NCBI RefSeq assembly: GCF_027587175.1
Contig: NZ_JAPCID010000057.1
Location: forward strand, 1 to 45,206
Length of the DNA stretch: 45,206 nucleotides
Reading direction: 5' to 3'
DNA from: Solirubrobacter deserti
GTDB lineage: Bacteria; Actinomycetota; Thermoleophilia; Solirubrobacterales; Solirubrobacteraceae
Each line of letters opens with the position of its first letter. Within the stretch, counting starts at the first letter, position 1. This document shows, piece by piece, positions 10,967 to 45,206 of this stretch. A program made the position numbers and the translations under genes. Below the pieces are notes generated by a model, which made no database searches, was not told where the DNA came from, and saw only the letters and a list, made by a program, of their open reading frames with translations.

Positions 10967-13810
10967 ATGACCCTGAGATTGCTGTTGACCACGGCGGCGT
11001 TGAGCCTCGCAGCGGCGGCGCCCGCGTTCGCGCAGGTGCCGCTGAAGGCCTCCTTCACGGCCACTCCGGAGCAGCCCGAGCGCGGGCAGCTCGTGACCTT
11101 CGTGGCCACGAGCGACGGCTCGAGCCTGAAGCCGATCGTCCATACGTGGGACCTGGACGGCGACGGCGAGTTCGACGACGCCCAGGGTCGCACCGCCGAG
11201 CGGGCGTTCGCCGCCGACGGGACGCACGTCGTGCGGTTGAAGGCCGTCCAGGGCGACGCAGCGAGCATCGCGGAGAAGACGTTCGTGATCGGCGGCCCGA
11301 CGCCCACGCCGACGCCCACGCCGACGCCGACGCCGACGCCTACACCCGAGGCCACGCCGGACGCGACGCCGACTCCCGCCACACCGCCCGCGCCGGCGCC
11401 CACGGCGCCCGAGGCGAAGTTCGATCGCCAGTGCACGCGCCACGGCCAGTACACGTTCTGCGCGCTGGGCATCGCCTACCAGGGCGAGAAGAAGCGCATC
11501 AGCGCGGCGCCCTCCACCGGCCAGATCGTCGCCTACGAGTGGGACCTCGACGGCAACGGCACGTTTGAGCAGAGCACGGGCGCGACGCCGTTCGTCGAGC
11601 AGGTCTTCGAGCCGCGCAGCGCGGGCGTACAGGCCGTGCGCGAGTGGACGGTGTCCGTGCGCGTGACCGACGCGAGCGGTGCGACGTCCACGGCTGGCTT
11701 CCAGATCAACGTCAAGCCGCCCAAGTGCGAGCGCGAGGCCGAGTTCGGCGCCTTCACTGCAACCGGCGCGTGCCTGCGCGACTGGGGCGACCACTACCGC
11801 TCGACGGAGCCGATCACGCTCAACGGCATCGCGATCGAGCCGCGTGACGGGCACTTCGTCCGCCTGTCGGCGTCGGAGATCAGCTCGCGCCGCGCGACGG
11901 TGTCCATGAACGCGGGCGGCACCTTCGCTGTCCTCTCCTCCGGCAAGTTCGAGTGGCGGCCGTCCGGGGACGAGCTGCGCGGCTTCGCCGTCGACGCCGG
12001 CGCCAGGATCAACGGACTGAAGGTGACCGGGCTGCAGGGGCGCCCGGTGCTGGCCGGCGGCGCGCTGCGCGCCAAGGTCTTCCTCGCGCTGCCGGAGCAG
12101 TTCGGCGGCGCGACGTCCGGCACGCCGGTCACGGTCGGCGGCGGCGCGCAGGCCGCCGACGGCGCGTTCTCGTTCAGCGTGCCGAGCGCGGCGCTGGGCC
12201 CGATCGGGCTCGACAAGCTCAACGTCCGTTACGACGGTGTGGACCTGTGGGAGATCGAGGCCGGCGTCGTGCTCCCGCCGCCCGCCTTCGTGAACGTCAA
12301 CGGCAAAGCCGGCATCCGCAACGACGGCCGCTTCGCCTACGCGCAGGGCGAGACGCAGTTCCCCGGCGGCATCGCGCTCGGCTCCACCGGCGTGTTCCTG
12401 GAGCGCATCAAGTTCCGCATCGAGGTCGACCCGCCCGAGAGCGAGTGCGTCCCGCAGGTGGGCGTCAAGCCGCTGTACTGGCCCGAGCACATCCTCGGCC
12501 CGCGGCCGTCCAACGTGCCCGCGACCGCCGACTTCGGCGTCCCGACCTTCGCCATGTGCGGCGAGGTGTCGCTCACGGCCGGCCCGTCGATCGGGGACGT
12601 CGCCGCCGCCCGCCTCACGGCCGGGCTCGGCTGGGCGACCTACGCCGACCGCCCGTGGGTGCTGCGCGCGTTCGGCGACCTGTACCTGATGAACAACAAG
12701 ATGGCCGAGGCCAGGCTGGCCGTGCACGGCGACGGCTACATCAGCGCGCTCGGCCGCTTCTACGTCGGCTGGTCGGGCGTCGCGTCGCTCAGCGGCGGCA
12801 TCCGGCTCGAGATGCTCGGCTCCAAGTTCAATGCCAGCGGGCGCGTCGACGCGTGCCTGGAGTTCGTCGACTGGTGCGCCGGCGCCCGCGCGATCGTCTC
12901 CACCAAGGGCATCGCCGCGTGCCTGAAGATCGACGTGCTGATCGGCGACTGGACGCCCGGCATCGGCTACGAGTGGGGCGACGCGCTGCCGACGCCGTAC
13001 CTGCAGGGCTGCGACATCGGCGACTACAAGGTCCGAATCACGCGCCCGCAGGCGGCGGCCGCGCAGTTCACGGGCGCGGCGCGCACGGTCGACGTGAAGG
13101 GCGGGCTGCCCGGCGCGTCGTTCGTCATCCAGGGAGCGGGCGGGGCGCCCAAGGTCACCGTCACGGGGCCGGGAGGGCAGGCGCCGGCGCTCACGCTCGA
13201 GAACGCGGGCGCGAACCTCACCCAGGTGCTGATCTCCAAGCCGGCCGCCGGGCGCTGGACGATCACGCCGCAGCCCGGGTCCGTGGCGATCACCGAGGTG
13301 CTCGCGGCGGACGGCCTCGCTGAGCCGAAGGTGTCGGCCCGCGTGCTGCGGCCGGGCGTGCTGCGCTACGCGGTGGAGCCGGTCGCCGGTCAGACGGTGC
13401 GCCTCGTCGAGCGCGGCGGGAGCGCGGGCGGCGACATCGGCGTCGCTCGAGGTGAGGGAACGTTGCGCTGGACGCCCGCCGAGGGCGCGGCCGAGCAGCG
13501 CCAGATCGTCGCGCTCGTCGAGCAGGACGGGATGCCGCGCGACGAGCTCGTCGTCGCCACCTACCGCGCGCCGAAGGCCGCGCGGCCGTCGAAGGTGCGG
13601 GGCGTGAAGGTCACGCGTGGCGGCGTGAAGTGGACCCGTGTGCGCGGCGCCGGCAGCTACGTGGTCGAGGCGCGGCTGCCCGGCGGGCGCACCGTGGTGC
13701 GCAGCGTAAGGGCGCCGCGGCTCGCGGTGCGCGGCGCCGTGCGCGTCAATGTGCGGGCCGTCAGCCCGAGCGGCATCACGGGGCCCCGAACAGCGGCGCG
13801 ACGTCCATGA
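10967..13810 (+). CDS. Giant secreted PKD protein, member A of the four-protein family
   Basis: This 947-residue protein is exported by a signal peptide (about 1-22, AFA|Q). A PKD domain (about 24-107, WDLDGDGEFDD) is followed by a Pro-Thr linker (111-127 and beyond) and a second PKD-like domain (about 150-249, YEWDLDGNGTF). The family core starts near 254: FGAFTATGACL, then ITLNGIAIEP (Asn286-Gly287). Amphipathic β-rich repeats continue to a Cys-rich segment (about 619-690: SKFNASGRVDAC, VSTKGIAACLKI, GIGYEW, GCDIGDYKV). The C-terminal part has a β-domain (AAGRWTITPQPGS, about 760-771), VEQDGMPRDELVVATY and a fibronectin-III-like end. No anchor is visible. The ribosome site is weak. Function is unknown; a surface or matrix role is inferred. 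Confidence 0.85.
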   Translation: MTLRLLLTTAALSLAAAAPAFAQVPLKASFTATPEQPERGQLVTFVATSDGSSLKPIVHTWDLDGDGEFDDAQGRTAERAFAADGTHVVRLKAVQGDAASIAEKTFVIGGPTPTPTPTPTPTPTPTPEATPDATPTPATPPAPAPTAPEAKFDRQCTRHGQYTFCALGIAYQGEKKRISAAPSTGQIVAYEWDLDGNGTFEQSTGATPFVEQVFEPRSAGVQAVREWTVSVRVTDASGATSTAGFQINVKPPKCEREAEFGAFTATGACLRDWGDHYRSTEPITLNGIAIEPRDGHFVRLSASEISSRRATVSMNAGGTFAVLSSGKFEWRPSGDELRGFAVDAGARINGLKVTGLQGRPVLAGGALRAKVFLALPEQFGGATSGTPVTVGGGAQAADGAFSFSVPSAALGPIGLDKLNVRYDGVDLWEIEAGVVLPPPAFVNVNGKAGIRNDGRFAYAQGETQFPGGIALGSTGVFLERIKFRIEVDPPESECVPQVGVKPLYWPEHILGPRPSNVPATADFGVPTFAMCGEVSLTAGPSIGDVAAARLTAGLGWATYADRPWVLRAFGDLYLMNNKMAEARLAVHGDGYISALGRFYVGWSGVASLSGGIRLEMLGSKFNASGRVDACLEFVDWCAGARAIVSTKGIAACLKIDVLIGDWTPGIGYEWGDALPTPYLQGCDIGDYKVRITRPQAAAAQFTGAARTVDVKGGLPGASFVIQGAGGAPKVTVTGPGGQAPALTLENAGANLTQVLISKPAAGRWTITPQPGSVAITEVLAADGLAEPKVSARVLRPGVLRYAVEPVAGQTVRLVERGGSAGGDIGVARGEGTLRWTPAEGAAEQRQIVALVEQDGMPRDELVVATYRAPKAARPSKVRGVKVTRGGVKWTRVRGAGSYVVEARLPGGRTVVRSVRAPRLAVRGAVRVNVRAVSPSGITGPRTAARRP
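11297..11347 (+). repeat. Pro-Thr hexanucleotide repeat (PT)8P
   Basis: Seventeen codons alternate Pro and Thr (CCG/CCC and ACG), making a flexible linker between the two PKD domains. The 6-bp unit keeps the frame, so slippage would change linker length and not switch the gene off. Confidence 0.9.
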
Positions 13811-14132
13811 AGATCCGGTAGTCGTCGATCAGCTCGCCCTCTCCGCGGTAGATCGTGACCACGGGGAGGGCGATCGTCGTCCCGTCCTTGCGCGTGTAGG
13901 TCACGGTCGACTCGACGATCGTGGCCGAGCCCTGCTCGAACTCCTCGATCACGTCGTGCTTGACGCCCGCGATGCCGTCGCAGAACCCGGCCCACACGTC
14001 CCGCACGTTGTCGCGGCCGACCACGGTCTCGCTGTTGCCGAACGTGAAGCGCACGTCGTCGGAGAGATGACGCGCGAACGCATCCGGCTCCATCGAGTCG
14101 ATGTCTTTGAAAAGGTCTGCGTGCCTGGACAT
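13776..14132 (-). CDS. SnoaL-like/NTF2-fold protein
   Basis: This 118-residue protein has the pattern of the SnoaL/NTF2 α+β cone: a helical start (FKDIDSMEPDAFARHLSDDV), RFTFGNSETVVGRDNVRDVW, and the paired strands TVTYTRKDGTTIALPVV and EGELIDDYRIFMD. Such proteins bind or isomerise small hydrophobic ligands in the cytoplasm. Only 29 bp separate it from the divergent dioxygenase gene, hinting at a shared substrate. Its last 35 bases overlap the end of the PKD-protein gene on the other strand. Confidence 0.78.
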   Translation of the reverse strand: MSRHADLFKDIDSMEPDAFARHLSDDVRFTFGNSETVVGRDNVRDVWAGFCDGIAGVKHDVIEEFEQGSATIVESTVTYTRKDGTTIALPVVTIYRGEGELIDDYRIFMDVAPLFGAP

Positions 14133-14161
14133 TGGCGAAGACTACGGAGGAGAACGCGGCC

Positions 14162-15136
14162 ATGCCCAACCCGGGAACGATCAACGGCACGCACCACCTG
14201 ACGTTCTGCGTCGGCGGCGCGCAGGAGGACTACGACTTCCACGTGCGCACGCTGGGCCTCAAGAGCGTCAAGAAGACGGTGCTCTTCGACGGCGAGATCC
14301 CGATCTACCACCTCTACTACGCGAACCGCGTCGGCGACGCGAGCACGATCCTCACCTCGTTCCCCTACCGCCAGGCCGGCTGGATGGGCAAGCGCGGAAC
14401 CAACCAGGCGAAGTCGATCAACGTCGCCGTGCCGGCGGAGTCGATCGGCTACTGGGCCGACCGCCTCAAGGGCGCCGGGATCGAGGCGCGGCAGGTCGAG
14501 CGCTTCGGCACCGAGCGGCTCGAGTTCGCGCACCCGTGCGGCATCCCGTACCAGATCGTGGGAGAGAAGCGCGAGGACACGCGTGAGCCCTACGGCGGCG
14601 GTGACGTGCCCGCCGAGCACGCGATCCGCGGCGCCTACGGCACGACCACCTCGGTGCGCGAGCCGGACCTGATGGACGAGTTCCTACGCGAGGCGTTCAA
14701 CTGCACGCCCGTCGCGAGCGAGGGCGCCGACCACCAGTACGAGATCGCCGGCGACGGCCACGGGCGCATGCTCGAGTTGGTCGAGGAACCGGACAAGCCA
14801 CAGGGCACGTGGCGCTTCGGCGAGGGGACCATCCACCACCACGCCTTCGACGTCGGCTCCTCCGAGAACCAGCTCGTGGTCAAGGACTACATCGTCGGCC
14901 TCGGCTACACGGACGTGTCCGACGTCAAGGACCGCGGCTACTTCTTCAGCGTCTACCTGCGCACGCCGGGCGGCGCGCTGTTCGAGCTCGCGTACTCGAC
15001 GCCGCAGGGCTTCACGATCGACGAGTCCGAGGACGAGCTCGGCACCCACATGTGCATCCCGCCCCACTGGGAGGACCGGCGCGCGGAGATCTCCACGCTC
15101 GAACCGATCGACACGATCGAGGAGGTGAAGGGCTAG
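14162..15136 (+). CDS. Ring-cleaving dioxygenase, two VOC/glyoxalase domains (MhqO/PcpA-like)
   Basis: This 324-residue protein has two vicinal-oxygen-chelate modules. The first starts GTHHLTFCVGG (metal-type His11/His12) and has LGLKSVKKTVLFD and YHLYYANRVGDASTILTSFP. The second has EGTIHHHAFDVG and ALFELAYSTPQGF, giving a His/His/Glu iron site. This matches the hydroquinone-type ring-cleavage branch and fits degradation of a dihydroxylated aromatic or quinol. A strong GGAGGAGA precedes the ATG at 14162; an in-frame TTG at 14132 would overlap the SnoaL start and is less likely. Confidence 0.87.
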   Translation: MPNPGTINGTHHLTFCVGGAQEDYDFHVRTLGLKSVKKTVLFDGEIPIYHLYYANRVGDASTILTSFPYRQAGWMGKRGTNQAKSINVAVPAESIGYWADRLKGAGIEARQVERFGTERLEFAHPCGIPYQIVGEKREDTREPYGGGDVPAEHAIRGAYGTTTSVREPDLMDEFLREAFNCTPVASEGADHQYEIAGDGHGRMLELVEEPDKPQGTWRFGEGTIHHHAFDVGSSENQLVVKDYIVGLGYTDVSDVKDRGYFFSVYLRTPGGALFELAYSTPQGFTIDESEDELGTHMCIPPHWEDRRAEISTLEPIDTIEEVKG

Positions 15137-33740: not shown

Positions 33741-35039
33741 ATGAGAGCCCTGATGGTGTCCGCGCTCGTCCTCCTCGTCTGTGCGGCTCCGGCCGCGGCG
33801 GACATCACGCGTCTGGCCACGGTCCCCGGCACGATTGTGGACGCCGCGCCGGATCGGGTGCTCTATCTCGAACGCCCGACGCAGCGGCTGATGGTGCAGG
33901 AGGTCGCGGGCGGCGCGCCCACGGCGGTCCCACTGCGCCCCGGAGGGTTCGCGACCGCCAACGCGAAGCTGATCGACGGCGGCGTCGTCTACGTCGCGCG
34001 GGATGGCGAGGCGCGCCTGTGGCTGGACTGGTGGCGCGGCGACGTGCTGCGGACAGCGGGCGCGTTCGGGCACACCCCGTTCTCGGTCGCGGGCGACTTC
34101 CTGCTGTGGAGCTCGGGCTCAGGGCTCGCCCGCACCCGCCTGTCCAGCGGACGCACCGACTACCTCACCCACAACTACCGCGCGAGCGGCGGCAACGCCG
34201 TCGCCGCGAACGGCGACGCCGTGTTCGCGACGCTGGACGGCGCACTGCACTGGCTGCGGGACGGCCGCATCTCGCGGATCGGGCGCGTCGGTTGGACATG
34301 GGCGTCGCAGCCCGTCTTCGACGGTACGGCCGTCGCCTTCCGCCGCACTGCGCCGTGCTGTGAATCCCCGAGCTTCATCGCCTACGGGGACGGCCCGGGC
34401 GAGATCATCCAGGACACGTTCCGGGAGGGCCCGGCGCCGCAGCCCGGCGTCGACTACATGGTCAACAACGGTTGGATCGCCTTCACGCGCCCGGCCGACC
34501 GGACGCGGCCGACGAGCCCGCTGCGCGTGTGGACGCGCGATCCGCAGGGGCGGCTCGACCTCGTGCACCCGGAGGCCGCGCGCCTGCAGGGCATCAGCCG
34601 CACCGGGCAGGTGCTCTACCGGGTCGGCAGCGAGTCCCAGCTGGTGGCGCGCGGCGAGCGGCCGTTTCGGCTGCCGCATGCGGTGGACCGCGCGTTCTGG
34701 GCGGATGGTCGTTGGCATCTGATCACGGGCGCGACGGTCTCGCGGCTCGACGTCTCGACCGAGCTTGTCCGCGGCCCCGACCGCGTGACGCCCAACGCGA
34801 TAGCGCTGTTCGAGCTCGCATCCTCGGTGCAGGGCGCACGGTACGAGTGCCGGCTCGACGACCGGCCCGCCGCGCCGTGCTCCGCCGATCCGCGCTTCGA
34901 CGATCTCGCCTTCGGCACCCACACCGTCACGGTCACGGCGATCGATCCGGAGACGGGGGAGCGTGACGCCACCCCGGCGACCTACACCTGGGTCGTCACG
35001 CCGCCGTCCGTCGGGCCGGAAGAGCCGTGCTGCACGTGA
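33741..35039 (+). CDS. Secreted β-propeller-like protein with C-terminal Ig-like domain
   Basis: This 432-residue protein has a signal peptide (MRALMVSALVLLVCAAPAAA). The next 320 residues show short repeating β-units with aromatic/Gly turns (RVLYLERP, GDFLLWSSG, GDAVFATLDGALHWL, QPVFDGTAVAF, NNGWIAF, GQVLYRVG), suggesting a propeller of about six or seven blades. A paired Cys-Cys (APCCES) is unusual. The C-terminus is one Ig-like module (YECRLDDRPAAPCSADPRF ... GTHTVTVTA) of the type repeated in the giant proteins at 38354-44666. Function is unknown; it is probably extracellular and lacks an anchor. Confidence 0.75.
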   Translation: MRALMVSALVLLVCAAPAAADITRLATVPGTIVDAAPDRVLYLERPTQRLMVQEVAGGAPTAVPLRPGGFATANAKLIDGGVVYVARDGEARLWLDWWRGDVLRTAGAFGHTPFSVAGDFLLWSSGSGLARTRLSSGRTDYLTHNYRASGGNAVAANGDAVFATLDGALHWLRDGRISRIGRVGWTWASQPVFDGTAVAFRRTAPCCESPSFIAYGDGPGEIIQDTFREGPAPQPGVDYMVNNGWIAFTRPADRTRPTSPLRVWTRDPQGRLDLVHPEAARLQGISRTGQVLYRVGSESQLVARGERPFRLPHAVDRAFWADGRWHLITGATVSRLDVSTELVRGPDRVTPNAIALFELASSVQGARYECRLDDRPAAPCSADPRFDDLAFGTHTVTVTAIDPETGERDATPATYTWVVTPPSVGPEEPCCT

Positions 35040-35084: not shown

Positions 35085-38000
35085 TCACGGCTTGAGCGTC
35101 TTGGCCCGGCCCGGCGCGCCGTCGGCGCGCACGGCGCGGACCACGACGCGCTCGAGCGTGTGGCCCGCAAGGCGCTTGACGGTGACACGCCGGGCCTTGC
35201 CGGGATCGACGTCGTACGTCAGCTCGCGACCGTCGCCGGTCCAGACGCCGACGGTGTAGCCGACAGCGCCGGGCACCGCGCTCCACTTGACCGTGCCGCC
35301 GCGGGTCGCGGTGACCCGCTTGGGCGCGGCGAGCGTGCGCAGCTTCGGCGCCGTGTAGCGCGCGACGGTCAGCGACGTCCGCGGCGCGCCGTTCTGCAGC
35401 ACGTCCGCCACGATGCGGCGCGTGCCGCCGCGCCCGAACGCCGGCTTGAAGCGCAGCGTGCCCTTCCGGCCCCGCGCGGTGCCGATCGTGAACGCCCCGC
35501 CGTCCGCGCGCAGCTCACGCAGCCGGACGGTCTGCCCCTTCAGCGGCGCGACCTCGTAGTCGGCGACGTACTTCCCGCGCACCCGCCGCACCTTCACCGC
35601 CACCGACGGCTCGGGCAGCGCCGCTGCGCTCGCGAGCGAGCGGACCGGCGCCGAGCCCGGCTGCGGCTCGACCGTCCAGCGCCCGGCCGCGGGCTTGGCC
35701 AGCACGACGTAGGTCGTGTTGTCGCCGGGGGAGTGGATGAACATGTGCCGCTCGCCCTTGACGATGCCGGCGGCGGACGCCGGCGCCGCGGCGGCGGCCG
35801 CACCCGGGCCCGCGAGCGCCACGTGCGGCGGCGCGCCCTCACCGCGCACGGCGATCACGGTCGCATCCAGCCCGGAGCCGAGGGACACGCTGGGCGCCCC
35901 GGCCTGCGCCGCCGACGCCGGCGTGTGCCAGCTGTCGAAGTCGCAGGAGTCGGCGACCCGCTCGCTCTTGCTGCCGGGACGGCCGTTGATGATGCCCATC
36001 TGCTTGACGTAGCCGATCGAGCCCGACCAGACCTTGAGGTCGATCTGGCCGCAGGCGCTGACCGTCAGCGCCTTGCTGTTGGAGGTCAGACGGGCCTCCG
36101 CGGCGGCCAGGCAGCTCGACTCGATCTCCGTGGAGATCACGCCGAACGAGAGCTTGCCCGCGAAGCACAGCCCGGCCTTGGCGCGGAAGTCCACCGAGCC
36201 GCTCGCGAACGCGCCCGTGAACGTGCCCTTGAGCTCGGTCTTGAGCTCGTTCTCGCCGTCCTTGCTCTTGAGCTTCCAGTCCTTGCCGAGCTCGGCGACC
36301 GCGGTGACGCCGCCTTCCTTGTACTCGATCGAGCCCTTGCCCCACTGCTCGCCGACGAACGACAGCGACCCGGAGAGCTTGAAGCCCTTGGCGTTGAACG
36401 TCAGGTCGCCGTCCGCGTCGACGAGCGAGAGCGGACCCTCGGAGGTGTAGATGCGCGGGCCCCAGGACAGGCCCAGGCCGACGGTGGCCTCCCAGTTGGG
36501 CTGGAAGACGTAGCCGATCTTGATCCGCTGCCAGTAGAGGCCGCCGAGGAACGGGCCCAGCCCGATGTTCGACACCTCGCCGGAGAGGTGCTTGAGCGTG
36601 CCCTCCTTGACGCCCACGCCGACCTTCACGTCGGGCGCGCGCGGGATCGGGATGGCGGCCGACAGCGTCGCCTCCCACTCGTTCTCGGCCGCCGAGTACC
36701 AGAACGACGCGCCGCCGATCCGCAGCCGGCCGAGGCCGATGTTGCCCTCCACCGTGCCGCCGAGCTTGTCGACCTTGAGCCCGTCGCGGTTGTCCGTGCG
36801 CACGGAGCCGATGAAGCCCGGGCCGTCCGCGGCGCTCTCGTAGTTGTCGTTGGGCGTCTTGCACTCTTCGTCGGCGGAGTCGACGAGCCCGTCGCGGTCG
36901 TCGTCGGTGCCGTTGGAGCACTGCGAGCGCCCGCTGCTGCTGTAGGCCTCGCCGGTCGGCGCAGTCCCGCTGAAGATGCCCGGGATGCCGATGTTGACCT
37001 CCAGGGACGTCGAGCCCTGCCCGAGCGAGAGCTTGTGCAGGCCCTTGAACGGCAGCCCGAAGAGCTTCACCGAGCCCGCGGCGCCGAACCCGTCGATGTC
37101 GGTCGGCCGCAGCGTGCCCGCCTCCTTGGGCAGGGTCCAGTTGAGCTCCTTGTGCTGCGCGAGCGGGATCGGGAGGCGGTCGAAGTACGTGGACGGGATC
37201 GACATCGACATCGACTCGGACCGCACGGTGCGCGACTTGACGTCGATCCGCACCCACTTGCCGGCGCCGGGCGTGATGTCGAGGCCGTTGAGCCGCACGG
37301 TGCCGGTCGTCGCGTAGAGGTTGGCGTCGAGCTTGGCGAAGCACTCCGCGTAGGCCTCGAGGATGCCGGTGCGGATGAACGAGATCCGCCGCTTGGTGCC
37401 CTTCCACTGCGCCAGCCCCGGGTCCTCGACCATCACGGGCCCACCGGCGTCGTTGTAGCCGGTGCAGCGGCTGTCTTCGGCGTTGCCGGACTCGCTCGTG
37501 CTCTCAGCGGCGCCCAGGACGAGGTCATTGCCGATCCGCTCGGCCGGCCACGGAGCCTTGCGCCACTCGAAGACCTCGGTCCCCCGGTGCGAGTAGGTGA
37601 TCTTGGCCGTGTGGCCCTCGGTCGTGTTGGTCAGCAGCGACGTGTGCGTGAGGAACTGCTTCGGATAGTCCTTGAGGTAGACCGTCTTGTGCTCGGCGTC
37701 CATCGCGGTCGCCGACTCGCCGCTGACGAGCGCGTCCGCCGCCGACCCGATGACGGTCCAGTCCGTGCCCTTCGCGCCCTGCGGGTTCATCCAGCGGTTC
37801 AGCCGGTGGGCGAGGAAGGCCTTGCCCATCTCGTGGTCGGCGTCGAGCTCGCCGCAGACCCGTCGCGCACAGTCCGACGAGAGCTCCTTCCCGCCCGCGT
37901 GCGGCGCGTTGAGCGTGATCGCGTCCTCGAGCGCCAGCGACGGCTCGAGCGCCAGCGCGGCCCGCAGGACCACGCCGCCCGTCCCGGCCGCGACGGCGTC

Positions 38001-38357
38001 GAACGGCTGGGCGCCGTAGCGGTTCTTGAGGTAGTCCGCCAGCGCGCGGCCGTGTGCCTCCACGCCCGCGCTGTCGGCGACGCCCACGTTCCAGTCGCAG
38101 TTGGTGTCGCCCGCGTGCGTCGAGACGGTCACGAACGGCGTCGTCTTGAAGCGGTGGAAGCGCTCGTCGGCGAGGATCCGTTGCTGGCGCAGCTGCCCCT
38201 GCAGCGGCTTCCACGTCGCCTTGCAGTCCACGGCCGTGCCGGTCTCGCCACCCGAGACGAACACGACCGGCTTGACCGTGTCGTCCGAGCGCTCCGCGGC
38301 GCCCGCCGGGGCGGCCGCGCCGAGCGCGACCGCCAGGGCCAACACGAGCCGCCTCAT
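35085..38357 (-). CDS. Giant secreted protein with lipase-like pseudoenzyme domain, family member D
   Basis: This 1,090-residue protein has a signal peptide (about 1-20). Residues about 28-250 resemble an α/β-hydrolase lipase: VVFVSGGETG, helix HGRALADYLKNRYG, nucleophile elbow AAGTGG (123-128), TLNAPHAGGKELSS, then Asp208 in GSAADALVSG and His238 in THTSLLT. The elbow has Gly125 where lipases have Ser, so hydrolysis by the usual triad is unlikely. The family core follows: GILEAYAEC, VRLNGLDITP (Asn357-Gly358), LNWTLP, a calcium-loop-like CSNGTDDDRDGLVDSADEEC (480-499), β-rich repeats, and the shared C-terminal domains (AAGRWTVEPQPGS, VPGAVGYTV). The ATG overlaps the upstream stop (ATGA). Confidence 0.82.
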   Translation of the reverse strand: MRRLVLALAVALGAAAPAGAAERSDDTVKPVVFVSGGETGTAVDCKATWKPLQGQLRQQRILADERFHRFKTTPFVTVSTHAGDTNCDWNVGVADSAGVEAHGRALADYLKNRYGAQPFDAVAAGTGGVVLRAALALEPSLALEDAITLNAPHAGGKELSSDCARRVCGELDADHEMGKAFLAHRLNRWMNPQGAKGTDWTVIGSAADALVSGESATAMDAEHKTVYLKDYPKQFLTHTSLLTNTTEGHTAKITYSHRGTEVFEWRKAPWPAERIGNDLVLGAAESTSESGNAEDSRCTGYNDAGGPVMVEDPGLAQWKGTKRRISFIRTGILEAYAECFAKLDANLYATTGTVRLNGLDITPGAGKWVRIDVKSRTVRSESMSMSIPSTYFDRLPIPLAQHKELNWTLPKEAGTLRPTDIDGFGAAGSVKLFGLPFKGLHKLSLGQGSTSLEVNIGIPGIFSGTAPTGEAYSSSGRSQCSNGTDDDRDGLVDSADEECKTPNDNYESAADGPGFIGSVRTDNRDGLKVDKLGGTVEGNIGLGRLRIGGASFWYSAAENEWEATLSAAIPIPRAPDVKVGVGVKEGTLKHLSGEVSNIGLGPFLGGLYWQRIKIGYVFQPNWEATVGLGLSWGPRIYTSEGPLSLVDADGDLTFNAKGFKLSGSLSFVGEQWGKGSIEYKEGGVTAVAELGKDWKLKSKDGENELKTELKGTFTGAFASGSVDFRAKAGLCFAGKLSFGVISTEIESSCLAAAEARLTSNSKALTVSACGQIDLKVWSGSIGYVKQMGIINGRPGSKSERVADSCDFDSWHTPASAAQAGAPSVSLGSGLDATVIAVRGEGAPPHVALAGPGAAAAAAPASAAGIVKGERHMFIHSPGDNTTYVVLAKPAAGRWTVEPQPGSAPVRSLASAAALPEPSVAVKVRRVRGKYVADYEVAPLKGQTVRLRELRADGGAFTIGTARGRKGTLRFKPAFGRGGTRRIVADVLQNGAPRTSLTVARYTAPKLRTLAAPKRVTATRGGTVKWSAVPGAVGYTVGVWTGDGRELTYDVDPGKARRVTVKRLAGHTLERVVVRAVRADGAPGRAKTLKP

Positions 38358-41300
38358 CGCCGGCCACCCTTCTTCTTCGTGGAGACGCGCTTGAGCGGCT
38401 TGCTCTTGTGCGGGGCGACGTTCGCCTTGCGCGTCGCCTTGATGCGCACGCGCGCGGCCTTGCTGACCTTGCCGTCCAGGCGCACCGTGCGCAGCGCCAC
38501 GCGCACGGTCACGTCACGGCCCACACCCGCCACGCGGATCGGCCGCTTGGCGTCGTCCGGCGCGAACGAGAGCTTGCGCCCGTCCGAGGTCGTGACGACG
38601 GCGTTGTAGCTCACGGCGTTCGGCACCGCCGCCCAGCGCACGAGCACGGCCGAACCCGTGCGGCGCGCGCGCAGCAAGCCCGGCTTGGCCGGCGTGCGCT
38701 CCTTCGGCGCCTTGTAGGAGGCGACCTTGATCTCCTCGCCCGGACGGCCGTCCTGCTCGATCTGGGCGACGATGTCACGCTTGCCCGCGGGACCGGCGCC
38801 CGGGGCGAAGCGCAGCTGGCCGCAGGCCGTCTTGCGCTCGGTGTCGACGCCGCCTGCCGCCTCGCGGCAGCGGCCGGGCTTGGCCACGCCGATGACGCGC
38901 TTGGTCCGCGGGCCCTTCTCGACGAACGTGATCTTCTGGCCGGGGGTGGGGGAGTAGCTGTAGGCCAGCGTGCGCTTGTGGCCCTTGCCGCCCACGCCGC
39001 CGACCAGCGTCGGCTGCGGGGTCGCGAACGCCTTGTCGACGGACGTCACCTCGACGCCCGCGTGCGGCTCGATCCGCCACTCACCGGCCGCCGGCCCGGT
39101 GACGAGGATCGACGTCGCCTTCTTGTGCGGGTCCGAGGCGATCATGTGCGAGCCCTCGACGAGCTCGCCGCCGTCCTCGGGCACCGTGATCCGGCGCCCG
39201 TCGGGGCCGACGAGGTCCACGCGCGGCGCCGCGTCCTTGCCGTGCACGCGCGCCGTGAAGGCCGGCATGTCGGCCGGGACGTCGATCGTCGGGATCGCGC
39301 CGACCTGCGACGGCCGCGCGAGGATCCACTTGCCGATCGAGCACGACGAGAGCATCAGGTCGAGGTCGTGGTTCTTCCACGTGTAGCCCGCGCCGCCCTT
39401 GACGGTGATCGGCTGCATCTCCCAGTGCACGCGCCAGGGCGCCCAGATCTTCCAGTTCTTGTTCTTGACCAGCACGGGGACCTCGAGCAGCGTCACCTTG
39501 ATGCAGCCCGCGGCGCCGACCGAGGAGGCGACCGCGCGCCCGTCCAGGCAGCCGACCTTGTAGACGCACACGCTGACCCAGCCCTCGACGTTGAAGCGCG
39601 AGGGCGAGCGCGTCTCGATCCAGCCGGTGACGCCGCCGTTGATCTGCGCGAGGCCGAAGTCGAGCTCGCCGCGGAAGTTGAAGTCGATCATCCCGGAGCC
39701 CCAGTAGGTGAAGTCCGAGGTCGCGACCTGCTTGCCGAACAGCGACAGCGAGCCGTTGGCCTTGATGAACCACGGCGTGCCGTTCCAGGCGTCGGAGTAG
39801 TGCAGGTCACCGTCGATGCGCACCGCGGACTTGCCGTCCACGGACGGGCCGAACGACACGGCCGCGCCGCCCTTGACCTGGAAGGGCGGCGGCTCCAGGC
39901 ACACGCCCAGCCGCACGCTCTCCAGGAACACGCCCGGCGCCAGCGGCACCATCGTGCCGAGGCCGTCGACGTACGCGCCCGCATGGCTGAGCTTGCCGTT
40001 GCGCAGGCCGCCCCACATGCCGAGCTGGGTCTTGGAGGCGGTGGGCAGGACGATCGCCAGCGCGCCGTCCCAGCGGTCGGCGTTGTTGTCGGAGCGGCAC
40101 TCCATGTACGGCTTCGGCTTGCCCGGGCCGATCGCCGGCGCCTGGCACGGCTCGACCGCGCTCGACCCGGCGCTCGCGAAGCTCAGGCACACGAGCTTGA
40201 CGCCGAGCTTGCCGATGTAGGCGTTCTCGACCTTGATCTTGAGCCCGTCGAGGTGGACGCCGTCGTTGTCGATGTTGATCGCGACGTCGCCCGTGACCGA
40301 GCCCGAGCCGCTGTCCGGGCCGGACTTGAACGCCTCGGGCAGCGCGATGTGCAGCGCCAGGACCGACTTGTACTTGCCGCCCGGCTGGGCCGGGGCGCGC
40401 AGACGCAGCGCGACGTGGCCCTCGACCTTCATGCCGAACAGCTTCTGGCCGGCCTTGGAGAGGTCGATCTTCTTGAACTCCTTCTCCTCGCCGAGCTTGC
40501 CCTCGGGGAGATCCCAGGACATGCCGCCCTCGTAGAGCTTGATGCCGGCCAGCTCGATCTTCACGTTCTGGATCGCGATCGAGCCGCCCTTCTTGTCGGG
40601 TGTCGGCGCGGTCAGGACGGTCTTGCTGCCGCCGATCGACGGCAGCGGGATGCCGTTGACCTTGACCGTGTCCTTGGACTCGTAGACGGGCTGGGCCTCG
40701 GTGCCGACGTTCTGCAGGCAGGGCGCGGTCGCCTCGATCACGCCGAAGCGCACGACGGGCTGGCAGTCGTCGACCGTGAACGAGCGCTTGGCGGGTGTCT
40801 CGTCCGTGTTGCCGGCGCGGTCGGTCGCGCGCACCTCGACGGTGTGCTGGCCGCCCGCGAGCCGCGGCGTCGTGAACTGGCCGTGCGGCGCGCACGGCTC
40901 CCACGTCTTGGTGTCGACGCCCTCCTGGCTGACGTTGTCGATCCGGCACTCGTACGTGGAGCCCGACTCGGAGGAGCCGAACTCGAACGTCTGCACCGTG
41001 CCGGTCCGTGCGCCCTCGGCCGGGCCGCTGACGATCGTCGTGTCCGGCGCGTCGGCGTCGATCGTGAACGCGCGCTGCGCCGGGGTCGTGTCGAGCTTGC
41101 CCTGCGGCGACTTCGCGCGTACGTTGAGCGTGTAGGCCCCGGAGCGCAGCTTCGGCGCCTCGAACGGCGACGAGCAGGCCGCCCACGCCGGCACCGAGGA
41201 GTTCGCGCCGTCGATCTTGCACTCGAACGTCGCGCCCGTGGTCTCGGTGGCGAACGTGAACGACGGCGTCGGGTCGTTGGTGACGTCGCCCGGGCCGCCC

Positions 41301-41629
41301 TCGATCGTGGTGTCCACGGTGGAGGTGTCGACCGTGAACGCCCAGCGCGGCGGGTTCGGCTCGACGTTGCCGGCGCCGTCGGTGGCGCGCACGGAGAACA
41401 CGTACTCGCCGTCGGGCAGCTGCACGCTGTAGGGCGAGGCGCACGACTTCCACGTGCCGGTCGGCTCGATCAGGCACTCGAACGTCGAGCCCGGTTCACC
41501 GCTGAAGGTGAACGTGGGCGTCGCGTCGGTGGTGATCTTCGCCGGACCCTCGTTGATCGTCTGGGCGGAGGCCGGGCCGGCGAGCGCCAGCATGGCGGTC
41601 ACCGCCGCCGAGATGATGCGTCCGTGCAT
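38354..41629 (-). CDS. Giant secreted protein with three Ig-like domains, family member C
   Basis: This 1,091-residue protein has a signal peptide (MHGRIISAAVTAMLALAG, cleaved near 22). Three Ig-like modules follow (about 24-101, 106-191, 196-287), each with a TFEC/TYEC cysteine, a second cysteine (KSCASPY, AACSSPF, EPCAPHG) and an RATD/RAKS turn. The family core starts at 289: FGVIEATAPC, VKVNGIPLP (Asn325-Gly326), MSWDLPEG, then β-rich repeats. The Cys segment (RFNVEGWVSVC, SSVGAAGCIKV, GGAGYTW, SSCSIGKW) and the C-terminal β and FnIII-like domains come next. The last 30 residues are very basic (KKKGGRR end), perhaps for cell-wall contact. AAAGGA precedes the ATG at 41629. Confidence 0.84.
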   Translation of the reverse strand: MHGRIISAAVTAMLALAGPASAQTINEGPAKITTDATPTFTFSGEPGSTFECLIEPTGTWKSCASPYSVQLPDGEYVFSVRATDGAGNVEPNPPRWAFTVDTSTVDTTIEGGPGDVTNDPTPSFTFATETTGATFECKIDGANSSVPAWAACSSPFEAPKLRSGAYTLNVRAKSPQGKLDTTPAQRAFTIDADAPDTTIVSGPAEGARTGTVQTFEFGSSESGSTYECRIDNVSQEGVDTKTWEPCAPHGQFTTPRLAGGQHTVEVRATDRAGNTDETPAKRSFTVDDCQPVVRFGVIEATAPCLQNVGTEAQPVYESKDTVKVNGIPLPSIGGSKTVLTAPTPDKKGGSIAIQNVKIELAGIKLYEGGMSWDLPEGKLGEEKEFKKIDLSKAGQKLFGMKVEGHVALRLRAPAQPGGKYKSVLALHIALPEAFKSGPDSGSGSVTGDVAINIDNDGVHLDGLKIKVENAYIGKLGVKLVCLSFASAGSSAVEPCQAPAIGPGKPKPYMECRSDNNADRWDGALAIVLPTASKTQLGMWGGLRNGKLSHAGAYVDGLGTMVPLAPGVFLESVRLGVCLEPPPFQVKGGAAVSFGPSVDGKSAVRIDGDLHYSDAWNGTPWFIKANGSLSLFGKQVATSDFTYWGSGMIDFNFRGELDFGLAQINGGVTGWIETRSPSRFNVEGWVSVCVYKVGCLDGRAVASSVGAAGCIKVTLLEVPVLVKNKNWKIWAPWRVHWEMQPITVKGGAGYTWKNHDLDLMLSSCSIGKWILARPSQVGAIPTIDVPADMPAFTARVHGKDAAPRVDLVGPDGRRITVPEDGGELVEGSHMIASDPHKKATSILVTGPAAGEWRIEPHAGVEVTSVDKAFATPQPTLVGGVGGKGHKRTLAYSYSPTPGQKITFVEKGPRTKRVIGVAKPGRCREAAGGVDTERKTACGQLRFAPGAGPAGKRDIVAQIEQDGRPGEEIKVASYKAPKERTPAKPGLLRARRTGSAVLVRWAAVPNAVSYNAVVTTSDGRKLSFAPDDAKRPIRVAGVGRDVTVRVALRTVRLDGKVSKAARVRIKATRKANVAPHKSKPLKRVSTKKKGGRR

Positions 41630-41633
41630 CGGG

Positions 41634-44600
41634 TCAGTCCTTTCGGGTCCAGGTGGCGGCGCGACCCGTGCCGTTGTCGGCACGCATCGCCACGACACGG
41701 ACGCTGACGGCGTCCGCGATCTTCACGACGCGCGTGTCCGCGTCGACCAGCTTGAGCACGACGCGGCCGTCCGGCAGCGTGACGCGCACGGAGTAGCGAT
41801 CCGCGTTCGCGGCCGGACGCCACGCGATCGTCGTCGGCGCGGTGCCGGACGCCGCGGACGCGCGGCGCGTGACCTTCAGCGCCCTCGGGATGCCCGGCTT
41901 CACGCGCGCCGGCGCGATGTAGGACGCGACGGTCAGGCGCTTGCGCGGGAGCCCGTCCTGCTCGACGACGGCGACGATCGTGCGCTTGCCGCCGCGGCCG
42001 TCGGCCGGGCGGAAGCGCAGAGTGCCCTTGCCGCCGCCGCGGACCGTGCCGAGCACGTGGTCGGCGGCCGTGCCCCGTTCCTCGAAGCGCACGGTCTGGC
42101 CCGCCTGGCGCGCGACGCTGTACTTCAGCGTCCGCGTGCGGCCGGAGCCGCCGACCCGCGCGCGCACCTTCACGGCGGGACGCAGCTCGGCGCTGCTGAC
42201 GGCGGCGATCGTCGCGCCGCCGGCCGGCGTGATCGTCCAGCGGCCGCCGCGCGGACGCGACAGCACGACGTAGGTGGTCTGGGTGCCGCTGTTGGTGAAC
42301 GCGAGCGAGCGCTCGGTCTTGCCCGGCGCCGCGATCTTCGTGCCGCCCGGACCGCGCAGCTGCACCTGCGGCGCAGCGCCGGCGCCGCGCACGGCGACCA
42401 TGATCGCGCGCTTGCCCTTCGGCAGCACGATCGTCTTCTCACCGGGCGAGGCCGCGCTGGCCTTGGCCTTCTCCACGCGCCAGTCCTTGAGATCGCACGT
42501 GCCGGCCATGAACTTCAGCGAGCCGCCCCACGTGTAGCCGGCGCCGACCCCGCCGATGTTGTCGTTGCCGACCTTCAGCTGGCCGCAGAGCGCGATGCCC
42601 TTGCTGGAGACCAGGCCCTCGACGCGTGGGCACAGGTTCGGGATCGGCACCGGGACGGTGTCGGCGACCTTGTAGGTGCCGGAGAAGCAGCCCTGGGCCG
42701 AGATCTCCGCGTTGAACTTGGAGTCCTCGATGAAGCCGTCGACGGACGCGTCGATGGTCACGGCGGCGTCGATCGAACCGAGCGGCACCGGGCCCTTGAG
42801 CCCGAGCGAGAAGTTCAGCTTGCCGCCGAAGTCGACCGCGCCGTTGGAGGCGTAGCCGAGGTGCAGGTCCTTGAACGTGTAGTCGCGGTCACGGGTGAGC
42901 GTGGCCAGCGGCGCCTCGGCGCGCAGCGACCATGGGTCGCCGGCCTTGAAGATCAGCCCGGCGTCCGGGATCTTGAGGTTCGCCTCGCCCTTGTCGATGC
43001 CGAGCGCCGTCAGGCCGATGCGGCCCTCGACGGTCACCGGCGAGCCGGCGCAGACCTTGATCGCGATCTTCTGCACGCGGATGCCGGCGCCGATGTTCAG
43101 GCCCGGCTCGTGGTTGAGCGTCCCGACCGCGTGGTTGAAGCCGCCGTCGGCGAAGCCCATGCCGACGTTGTCGATGCGGAGCTTGTTGGGCGTGGGGAGG
43201 ACGATCGCCTCGGCGCCGCCCTCCCACTTCAGGCCCGGGGAGTCGTGGTTGCAGGTCGGCTTGGCGTCGCCGTTGTGCTCACCCGAGAACGTGAGGTGCA
43301 GGTTGTGGATCTCGACCTTGCCGACGAACACGAGCGGCGCGTTGATCTTCAGGCCGGAGAGGTGGATGCCGCGGACGTTGTCGGACTTGACCTCGACGGC
43401 GCCGGTGAGCCCGTTGCCCTCGGCGTCCTGGAAGACCTTCGGCAGCTCGACGTTGCCGCTGAGCACCGCGATCCCGCCCTTGAGCAGCTCGAGCTTGGCC
43501 TCGCCCACGAGCTCGAAGCCCTGGACGTTGGCGCCGTCGTCGCCCTTGAGGTCGAGCGCCTTCTCGGAGTCCTTGGGCTTGGAGCCGAGCTTGGTCTTCG
43601 AGCCCACGTTGAACTTCGCCAGGGTGACCTTGTCGCCCTCGGGCACGGTCCACTCGAGGTCGCCCTCGTAGAGCACGATGCCCTTGATGCGCAGCTGGAT
43701 CTGGCCGAGCGAGAGCTTGCGCTTGTCGGTGTCGAAGCGCAGCTTGCGGCCGTCGATCTTGTTGAACGTGATGCCGTTGACCTTCACCGAGTCCTCGGCC
43801 ACCCACAGGCCGTCCTCGCGGTAGAAGCAGTCCGCGACGGCCTCGACGACGCCGATCGTCAGCTTCTCCGTGCAGTCGCGGACCTGCAGCACGCGGGCGG
43901 CGGGCGTCGGGTCGACGTTGCCGGCCGCGTCGGTGGCGCGCGCGTACACGGTGTGCTCGCCCGGCGTCAGCTCGGCCGTCGTGTACGACGCGTCGCACTT
44001 GGCCCACGCGGCGTCGTCGACCTTGCACTGGAACGTCGAGCTCGGGCGCGTGGACGCGAGCGCGAACGTCGGCGTGCGCTCCTTCGTGGAGCCCTCGACG
44101 CCGTCGATCGTCGTGTCCGGCCCGGTCGCGGCGAACGTGAGCACACGCGAGGCCACGGTCTGGTTGTTCGCCGCGTCGGCCGCGATCACGTTCACGGAGT
44201 GCGTGCCGTTGGCCAGCACCGGGGTCGTGAACGGCGACGTGCACGGCGCCGCTTCGCCCGAGTCGATCGCGCACCGGAACTCCACGCCCTCCTCCGGGGA
44301 GGAGAAGGTGAGCGTCGCGGTGACGTCGTTGATCGTGTCAGGGCCGGGATCGAGCGTGAGCGCGGGCGCGACCGAGTCGACGGTGAACGAGTGGAAGGCG
44401 CTCGTGCCGTCGGCCGTGCTGCGCACGCGGAACACGTGGCTGCCGTCGGTCAGCCTGGGCGCCTTGTAGACGCCGTCCGCGCACGGCTGCCAGGCCAGCT
44501 GGTCCATCCGGCACTCGGCCGGCGCCGCGGCCGTGAACGAGAACACGGGCTCGGGGTCGTTGGTCAGACGGACGGGCCCGTCGTCGATCCGGGTCTGCGC

Positions 44601-44666
44601 GTGCGCGGTCCCGGCGAGGACGCCGGCGAACGCCAGCGTCACCACCATCAGGCGGAACAGGTTCAT
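41634..44666 (-). CDS. Giant secreted protein with three Ig-like domains, family member B
   Basis: This 1,010-residue protein has a signal peptide (MNLFRLMVVTLAFAGVLAG, cleaved near AHA). It has three Ig-like modules (about 25-97, 100-180, 183-264), each with a cysteine pair (e.g. TFQCKVDDAAWAKC). The family core starts at 265: IGVVEAVADC, VKVNGITFN (Asn297-Gly298), LEWTVPEG (337-344). β-rich repeats follow to the Cys segment (about 650-730: FNAEISAQGC, SSKGIALCGQL, GAGYTWG, GTCDLKDWRV) and the shared C-terminal part (RGAGAAPQVQLRGPGG, GGRWTITPAGG, VEQDGLPRKRLTVASY, FnIII-like end). The start overlaps the upstream stop (ATGA). An in-frame extension to 44864 is arginine/histidine-rich shadow sequence and is rejected. 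Function unknown. Confidence 0.84.
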   Translation of the reverse strand: MNLFRLMVVTLAFAGVLAGTAHAQTRIDDGPVRLTNDPEPVFSFTAAAPAECRMDQLAWQPCADGVYKAPRLTDGSHVFRVRSTADGTSAFHSFTVDSVAPALTLDPGPDTINDVTATLTFSSPEEGVEFRCAIDSGEAAPCTSPFTTPVLANGTHSVNVIAADAANNQTVASRVLTFAATGPDTTIDGVEGSTKERTPTFALASTRPSSTFQCKVDDAAWAKCDASYTTAELTPGEHTVYARATDAAGNVDPTPAARVLQVRDCTEKLTIGVVEAVADCFYREDGLWVAEDSVKVNGITFNKIDGRKLRFDTDKRKLSLGQIQLRIKGIVLYEGDLEWTVPEGDKVTLAKFNVGSKTKLGSKPKDSEKALDLKGDDGANVQGFELVGEAKLELLKGGIAVLSGNVELPKVFQDAEGNGLTGAVEVKSDNVRGIHLSGLKINAPLVFVGKVEIHNLHLTFSGEHNGDAKPTCNHDSPGLKWEGGAEAIVLPTPNKLRIDNVGMGFADGGFNHAVGTLNHEPGLNIGAGIRVQKIAIKVCAGSPVTVEGRIGLTALGIDKGEANLKIPDAGLIFKAGDPWSLRAEAPLATLTRDRDYTFKDLHLGYASNGAVDFGGKLNFSLGLKGPVPLGSIDAAVTIDASVDGFIEDSKFNAEISAQGCFSGTYKVADTVPVPIPNLCPRVEGLVSSKGIALCGQLKVGNDNIGGVGAGYTWGGSLKFMAGTCDLKDWRVEKAKASAASPGEKTIVLPKGKRAIMVAVRGAGAAPQVQLRGPGGTKIAAPGKTERSLAFTNSGTQTTYVVLSRPRGGRWTITPAGGATIAAVSSAELRPAVKVRARVGGSGRTRTLKYSVARQAGQTVRFEERGTAADHVLGTVRGGGKGTLRFRPADGRGGKRTIVAVVEQDGLPRKRLTVASYIAPARVKPGIPRALKVTRRASAASGTAPTTIAWRPAANADRYSVRVTLPDGRVVLKLVDADTRVVKIADAVSVRVVAMRADNGTGRAATWTRKD

Positions 44667-45206
44667 CGACGGGCCTCCTTTGCCCTCAGGGTCACGGTGA
44701 GCCGCTTGGCGACGGTGCCGCCGGCCGCGCGGGTCTTGACGAGCACGGACAGCTGCTGTCCGCGCTTGGCCTTGACGGAGACCGTCTTGGTCTTGCCGGC
44801 CTTGATGGTGAACTTCGTGGCGTTGACGGTGCCGCGGCACGCGCCGGCGTGGCCCTTCGGGCACAGCACGCGCAGCTTGGCCCGCTGCTTGGCCACCTTG
44901 ACCTCGCGGCCGGCGTCGAGGAGGCGGACGGTGCGCGCATCGGGCGTGAGCAGGAGGTCGTCGCCACGGACGGCCTCGCTGCGGCCCAGCTGGACCGTGG
45001 CGAACACGGCGACCCGGCCGAAGCGGTCGACCTGGTTGCGCGTGCTCATCGGCAGCGTCAGGCGGACCGTGACGGTCTCACCCGGCGCGGCGGAGAACGT
45101 CTCGCGCGCCAGCGTCACCGCGTTGGACGGGATCGACTTGCCTGCACGCGCGGCGCCCGCGCGTGGGCGGCCGTCGCCGGCCGCGCGCGCCGCGCCGGCG
45201 CGGGCC
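44663..45206 (-). CDS. C-terminal end of a secreted protein, truncated by the window edge
   Basis: The frame is open from the window edge to a TGA at 44663, giving about 180 residues without a start codon I can trust. A GTG at 45118 is possible, but an Ala/Gly/Arg-rich sequence continues in frame upstream. The visible part is β-rich (PGETVTVRLTLPMSTRNQV) with a cysteine pair in RVLCPKGHAGACRGTV and a lysine-rich end (KAGKTKTVSVKAKRGQQL). It is the first gene of the giant-protein operon as far as can be seen and overlaps gene B by ATGA. Confidence 0.65.
   Translation of the reverse strand, partial: ARAGAARAAGDGRPRAGAARAGKSIPSNAVTLARETFSAAPGETVTVRLTLPMSTRNQVDRFGRVAVFATVQLGRSEAVRGDDLLLTPDARTVRLLDAGREVKVAKQRAKLRVLCPKGHAGACRGTVNATKFTIKAGKTKTVSVKAKRGQQLSVLVKTRAAGGTVAKRLTVTLRAKEARR

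What the first reader, a model, noticed from the sequence alone, without database searches (positions are those of the whole stretch)
35085..44666. A family of four giant secreted proteins with one shared, unassigned core
The three tandem genes here and the distant gene at 10967-13810 share, in order, a Cys/Asn-Gly core entry. It reads FGxxxAxxxC (A, C), IGVVEAVADC (B) or GILEAYAEC (D), then [VI]x[VL]NG[IL], and then a W-x-[PL]P turn. Long amphipathic β-repeats follow, then a Cys segment clearest in A and B (SxKGIAxC, GxGYxWG, CD[IL]xD) and looser in C and D. All four end in a β-domain with GxW[TR]I/VxPxxG plus an FnIII-like end. Only the N-terminal modules differ: PKD in A, Ig x3 in B and C, lipase-like in D. 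I know no named family with this arrangement. It looks like a surface or matrix system in which one scaffold carries exchangeable N-terminal heads.
Basis: partly seen in the sequence, partly recalled or inferred. Interest (0 to 1): 0.85.

Follow-up and report, generated by a model that had tools for sequence, protein, structure and literature searches.

The report
Secreted protein family, unassigned shared core
Certain actinobacteria carry an apparently unnamed family of large, probably secreted proteins in which one cysteine-rich beta-sheet core of unknown function is joined to several different kinds of front end.

Summary
Genes A (10967-13810), B, C and D (35085-44666) share one homologous core plus a beta tail: a core profile built without window rows finds 10 of 10 family members of this genome, all four included, and 0 of 78 shuffled or reversed controls. 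The core reaches no Pfam or NCBIfam cut-off and no PDB chain by sequence. AlphaFold models of the A and B cores are all-beta with matching strands; they resemble ushers, LptD, porins and apoB only loosely. The family is in 71 of 398 genomes drawn from the class, rarely elsewhere. Heads include propeller (commonest), Ig, PKD, LamG, PATR and a hydrolase fold whose nucleophile serine is glycine. Heads mostly follow core subfamilies, so 'exchangeable' is true only with limits. B, C and D lie in a four-gene cassette; its paralogue ends in an LCAT-like lipase gene. Two 3,460-aa relatives carry 29 tandem copies of a unit that matches part of the core. Best reading: secreted display or matrix proteins with a stiff beta core; a lipid-binding belt is the boldest rival. 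Function and location are untested.

The parts
10967..11722 (+). Gene A, signal-like N-terminus and head (two PKD stretches, Thr-Pro linker), residues 1-252
   Evidence: PF18911 and PF00801 above cut-off; hydropathy
11723..13072 (+). Gene A, core, residues 253-702
   Evidence: independent profile; AlphaFold model, pLDDT 79.0, pTM 0.66
13073..13810 (+). Gene A, beta tail (GRWTITPQPG domain, FnIII-like end) and stop
   Evidence: alignment
43881..44666 (-). Gene B, signal-like N-terminus and three Ig-like units, residues 1-262
   Evidence: Big_13 above cut-off, one stretch; three units with a local profile seeded from B and C
42447..43880 (-). Gene B, core, residues 263-740
   Evidence: repeat-unit match at about residues 479-537, profile against profile
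41634..42446 (-). Gene B, beta tail (domain with GRWTITP, then two FnIII-like domains) and stop
   Evidence: model residues 574-756 match FnIII pairs, Z about 10-11
40772..41629 (-). Gene C, signal-like N-terminus and three Ig-like units, residues 1-286
   Evidence: Big_13, 3 stretches, 9.2e-22
39302..40771 (-). Gene C, core, residues 287-776
38354..39301 (-). Gene C, beta tail and Lys/Arg-rich end
   Evidence: alignment; net +15 in the last 40 residues
37395..38357 (-). Gene D, signal-like N-terminus and alpha/beta-hydrolase-like head with Gly in place of the nucleophile Ser, residues 1-321
   Evidence: 32% identity to gene G; motif alignment
35901..37394 (-). Gene D, core, residues 322-819, the most divergent of the four; lacks the first entry Cys
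   Evidence: independent profile 1.6e-10; alignment
35085..35900 (-). Gene D, beta tail and stop
   Evidence: alignment
44663..45206 (-). Gene U, 3' part only (2075 aa in all, continues beyond the window): PD40 propeller, PKD, Big_13, no core; its stop overlaps the start of B by 4 bases
   Evidence: cassette order U-B-C-D

Best explanation
A, B, C and D belong to one family of multidomain, probably secreted proteins. Shown: a signal-like N-terminus, a variable head, a homologous core of 450-498 residues predicted to be all beta, with six cysteines kept in 40 to 56 of 56 rows (two near the entry, four near the end), and a beta tail. Inferred: the protein is exported, its cysteines pair outside the membrane, and the core forms a long stiff antiparallel sheet that holds the head away from the cell or from a matrix, while the tail (a domain weakly like a galactose-binding one, two FnIII-like domains, a basic end) touches wall or polymer. 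The head sets what is bound; in D the hydrolase-like head lacks its nucleophile and is more likely a binding head than an enzyme. In the genus the four-gene cassette would be made together and act together.
For: Homology of core and tail. No curated family over cut-off on the core and no PHROG or PDB sequence relative. Strand or non-strand agrees at 90.5% of 391 aligned positions of the A and B models, 48-63% when shifted. Cysteine counts. Signal-like start, no LPxTG-like end or C-terminal span in A-D. Heads are extracellular-type modules. Gly for Ser in 4 of 4 hydrolase heads examined. Tight gene spacing and conserved cassette order in this genome twice and in two genus-mates. Relatives in another class with 29 tandem units each and LVVTG or LAYTG, a hydrophobic span and a charged end. 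No Omp85 match and one sortase in this draft genome.
Against: No localisation, binding or phenotype data; spacer and binding roles are read from architecture. The four proteins have no sortase-type end of their own. Head type follows the core subfamily, which a mere carrier would not require. The galactose-binding-like match (PF23560) is below its cut-off. Both models used the same 16 sequences, so they are not independent; pTM of the B model is 0.49. The repeat unit was not found in B, C or D singly and only at 0.14 in A; the link is profile against profile, 95.4%.
Confidence: 0.5

Rival explanations
1. The core is a hydrophobic beta groove or belt (working like apoB sheets, LptD or AsmA-like grooves) that binds or moves lipid outside the cell, and the cassette is an extracellular lipid-handling set.
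For: Amphipathic long strands in B, for example residues 611-627 with faces of mean hydropathy +2.73 and -2.25. First VIA row of the A core is an apoB100 fragment (Z 12.1, rmsd 8.6, 221 residues), and LptD chains are among the Foldseek rows. The paralogous cassette holds gene G with an LCAT match of 33 bits, cut-off 21; D has a hydrolase-like head.
Against: TM-scores at most 0.27 in the 50 Foldseek rows shown for the A core, rmsd 8.6-13.9 in the VIA rows, porins tied: it may be only the look of long sheets. The lipase gene was seen only in the genus; none of 20 annotated loci outside it shows the D/G hydrolase profile (distant lipases could be missed). Amphipathic strands are expected in any beta sandwich. 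No AsmA/TamB-type Pfam match in the proteins scanned.
Confidence: 0.15
2. The core is a membrane beta-barrel, porin- or usher-like.
For: FimD usher is the first VIA row of the B model (Z 12.4, rmsd 7.8, 258 residues); ushers, LptD and porins fill the lists of the A core. Short turns alternate with longer loops in part of the A model.
Against: No Omp85 match in this genome at E 0.1 while 7 of 14 control genomes ring (the assembly is a draft, 96.7% complete). Conserved cysteines in the core. Relatives with a sortase-type end. Low TM-scores.
Confidence: 0.06
3. They are secreted degradative enzymes: the heads are catalytic, core and tail are accessory binding parts.
For: Propeller heads with weak BNR matches below cut-off, a LamG head, a hydrolase-like head; sugar-binding-like tail domain, below cut-off.
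Against: No catalytic family over cut-off in A-D. Nucleophile missing in 4 of 4 hydrolase heads. Ig and PKD heads are not enzymes (general knowledge).
Confidence: 0.15
4. The likeness comes from beta-rich, Gly/Ala-rich composition and not from common descent.
For: Core identities among the four are only 21-27%, and D is weak against A and B alone (0.002).
Against: Independent profile: 10 of 10 members, 0 of 78 controls; shuffled cores at best 0.61; near-invariant Cys and NG positions.
Confidence: 0.01

Closest known systems
Modular secreted adhesins with Big/PKD/FnIII modules
   Same: Signal-like start, Ig and PKD modules, FnIII-like end, large size
   Different: Here the constant part is a cysteine-rich core that no curated family covers; that known adhesins lack it is recalled, not tested beyond
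GBD_Hemicentin (PF23560)
   Same: First tail domain gives weak matches: 4.8e-5 in L061, 0.22 in B
   Different: Below the curated cut-off in both
Long beta-sheet lipid proteins (apoB, LptD; AsmA/TamB recalled)
   Same: Long amphipathic antiparallel strands; tandem beta units in the giant relatives
   Different: No sequence match; TM-scores at most 0.27 in the rows shown
LCAT and palmitoyl-thioesterase-like alpha/beta hydrolases (PF02450, PF02089)
   Same: Head of D is homologous to the first domain of gene G; G matches both families over cut-off
   Different: Head of D and first domain of G have Gly at the nucleophile place
Conserved signature protein WP_093115827.1 (993 aa, unknown function, class Thermoleophilia), PMC6544083 Table 2, read
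   Same: Size, class and unknown status only
   Different: Its sequence is not held here and was not compared; our family is patchy (71 of 398), so identity is doubtful

Membership tests
Shared-core family (this finding) | Core recognised by a profile without window rows | tested here: met
   A 1.2e-32, B 2.6e-29, C 1.3e-34, D 1.6e-10; 0 of 78 controls
Shared-core family (this finding) | Same predicted fold in all four | tested here: inconclusive
   Only A and B were modelled, from one 16-row set; C and D were not predicted
A curated Pfam or NCBIfam family for the core | Match over the curated cut-off within the core | tested here: not met
   A-D; relatives: Pfam, NCBIfam for L087 and L088 only
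Outer-membrane beta-barrel | Omp85 assembly protein in the host | tested here: not met
   0 matches at E 0.1 in a draft genome, 7 of 14 controls ring
Outer-membrane beta-barrel | Clear fold match to a barrel family | tested here: inconclusive
   Z about 10-12 with rmsd 7.7-13.9, many barrels tied
Sortase-anchored surface protein | LPxTG-like motif, membrane span, basic end | tested here: not met
   No L[PA]xTG in the last 80 residues of A-F and H-K; LAYTG or LVVTG in the two giant relatives
Active alpha/beta-hydrolase (head of D) | Nucleophile Ser in GxSxG (motif recalled) | tested here: not met
   Gly there in D, its G309 counterpart and the first domains of G and of its G157 counterpart
AsmA/TamB/apoB-type lipid groove | Open hydrophobic groove that binds lipid | not testable with these tools
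   model coordinates are not returned; no binding data

The most novel reading that the evidence does not exclude
An actinobacterial extracellular lipid-carrier system: the core is a secreted, disulphide-stapled beta belt that holds lipid somewhat as apoB does, drawn out to 29 repeat units in wall-anchored relatives, and made together with an LCAT-like lipase and a partner that wears a dead lipase as its head.
Probability: 0.08. Interest if true: 0.8.

Novelty: new variant of a known kind. Interest (0 to 1): 0.45.

Why it matters
A core without a Pfam or NCBIfam family, present ten times in one genome and recurring through a little-studied class, is a ready target for naming, structure and secretome work. 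If it is a display scaffold it would show how these bacteria vary what they bind; if it binds lipid it would be an unexpected secreted lipid carrier in a bacterium in which no outer-membrane assembly protein was found.

Tried and rejected
Two scans of viral contigs and one of plasmids gave no relative. Full-text searches listed no paper on this family that I could recognise from titles and abstracts; of the papers only PMC6544083 was opened (passages, section 10). Most subscription papers are not held.

Slice-against-slice matches inside the core were dropped because the slices overlap by up to 25 residues; only the giant-repeat against core-slice comparison is used. In one search no unit was found in B, C, D, E, H, I, J or K and only weak ones in A (0.14, 0.25) and F (0.16); 11 of 56 family rows, none of A-K, pass 1e-3, against 0 of 115 controls (best 0.034). 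The membrane-barrel reading was set aside after the Omp85 search. Of the structure lists only the 50 rows shown were seen, and AsmA-type chains are not among them, which says nothing against that fold.

Counts of genomes are lower bounds: three candidates per genome were scored, six. The window's genome has 5.04% estimated contamination; genus-mates hold counterparts of A, B, C, D, E, F and H, not shown for I, J, K. Head classes come from local profiles seeded with family members. The tree is a quick one, SH-aLRT support only, 17 of 45 inner branches open.

Full report
What is there. The four genes are long open frames: A 10967-13810 (+), B 41634-44666 (-), C 38354-41629 (-), D 35085-38357 (-). 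U and B, and C and D, overlap by 4 bases; B and C are 4 bases apart. U (2075 aa; PD40 propeller, PKD, Big_13, no core) runs out of the window. By hydropathy and pattern, A-D begin with a signal-like stretch, have no C-terminal span or LPxTG-like end, and have net basic ends; no signal-peptide predictor was run.

Homology. Full-length BLAST values between the four run from 1.5e-36 to 4.2e-105. Cut to the core the signal is weaker: B-C 3.6e-27, A-C 1.2e-17, C-D 3.0e-8, A-B 6.6e-8, A-D and B-D 0.002; 30 of 45 pairs among the ten own-genome members are below 1e-3, and the best of 2000 comparisons with shuffled cores is 0.61. The strongest test is a core profile of eight relatives without any window row: it recovers 10 of 10 own-genome members, D last at 1.6e-10, and neither the three coreless proteins G, U, V nor any of 78 reversed or shuffled ones.

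Core anatomy. Over 56 aligned rows, 8 of them repeating another row's core, six cysteines recur: B residues 265 (48 rows), 280 (53), 660 (44), 679 (40), 694 (56) and 724 (55). Three disulphides in an exported protein are an inference; D lacks the first of the six. The tail has a domain with GxWxIxP, weakly like the hemicentin galactose-binding domain but under its cut-off, then FnIII-like domains.

Structure. AlphaFold gave B 255-1010 at mean pLDDT 77.8, pTM 0.49, and the A core at 79.0, pTM 0.66. Both are almost wholly beta; strand assignment agrees at 90.5% of 391 aligned positions against 48-63% at shifted registers. The same 16 sequences fed both jobs; C and D were not modelled. Structure searches return ushers, LptD, porins and apoB100: for the A core TM-scores are at most 0.27 in the 50 Foldseek rows shown, and VIA rows have Z 10.1-12.1 with rmsd 8.6-13.9; for the B model a FimD usher has Z 12.4, rmsd 7.8 over 258 residues. 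I read this as 'long antiparallel sheet', not as membership of any of these families.

No named family. Pfam and NCBIfam give nothing over cut-off in the core of A-D, PHROGs nothing, and no PDB chain matches the A2 profile at E 10.

Distribution. The genome holds ten members. A draw of 398 genomes of the class has 71 with a match; a draw of 396 from the phylum has 11, two of them in other classes; in the class of one of these, 2 of 198. Of the 12 loci, ten are titled as Thermoleophilia or groups within it (Paraconexibacter placed there from memory) and two only as Actinomycetota or Actinobacteria. Patulibacter minatonensis is Thermoleophilia, Solirubrobacterales.

Heads. With local profiles, 48 distinct rows divide into propeller 25, Ig 7, PKD 6, hydrolase-like 1 and other 9. 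Pfam names two of the others: LamG in L060, PATR in L099, the gene of row L044. On the core tree the labels need 10 changes against a shuffled mean of 21.3, as low in 0 of 200. So heads travel mostly with their subfamily, with some swaps, as within the supported clade of C and F, which also holds a PKD-headed, a PATR-headed and an unclassified row. Deep branches are weak; D, K, L061 and L042 are long.

Cassette. This genome has two versions: U-B-C-D here and V-E-F-G on another contig, where G has two alpha/beta-hydrolase domains and an LCAT match over cut-off in the second. Genus-mate G157 has V-E-F-G (66-86% identity) and G309 has U-B-C-D (40-67%). The head of D is homologous to the first domain of G; in the four sequences compared, Gly stands at the nucleophile place. 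In 20 loci outside the genus (two of them the same Patulibacter place) only one member each was found and no other frame matched the D/G hydrolase profile.

Giant relatives. In G656, of another class, proteins of 3459 and 3458 aa carry a tandem array of a 55-residue unit, 29 matches each between about residues 880 and 2770 (68 matches in both proteins together, ten of them outside that array), followed by the second half of the core and the tail. Profile against profile the unit matches B about 479-537 with 95.4%. They end in LVVTG or LAYTG, a hydrophobic span and a charged end, like sorting signals (likeness recalled).

Reading. The most economical account is a secreted display or matrix protein: variable head, stiff beta core, polymer-binding tail. 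A lipid-binding belt is possible and would be more surprising. A membrane barrel is unlikely because no Omp85 was found in this draft genome. Function, partner and location remain untested.

Noticed in passing
L087:1569-11948 and L088:556-10932: Two 3,460-aa proteins with 29 tandem 55-residue beta units each, Gly-Asp-Pro and Thr-Asp-Pro linkers and a sorting-signal-like end; they share the second half of the core.
   Followed up: partly
L023:4074-6572: Tandem alpha/beta-hydrolase (gene G): first domain with Gly at the nucleophile place, second domain LCAT-like; last gene of the paralogous cassette.
   Followed up: partly
window 36855-36926 (D residues 478-501): Acidic, Cys-flanked DDDRDG insert in the core of D, 31.3 bits against a cut-off of 41 for NF033662; looks like a Ca-binding loop.
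   Followed up: no
window 33741-35039: 432-aa protein on the other strand next to D, with a signal-like start and an Ig-like end that matches the Ig head of B (2.7e-5).
   Followed up: no
G000:C1:217491-221750: 1900-aa frame with many matches to the Ig head of B and no core match.
   Followed up: no
window 14132-15136 and L085:11201-12262: Similar gene beside A in both this genome and genus-mate G309; conserved order, probably plain synteny.
   Followed up: no
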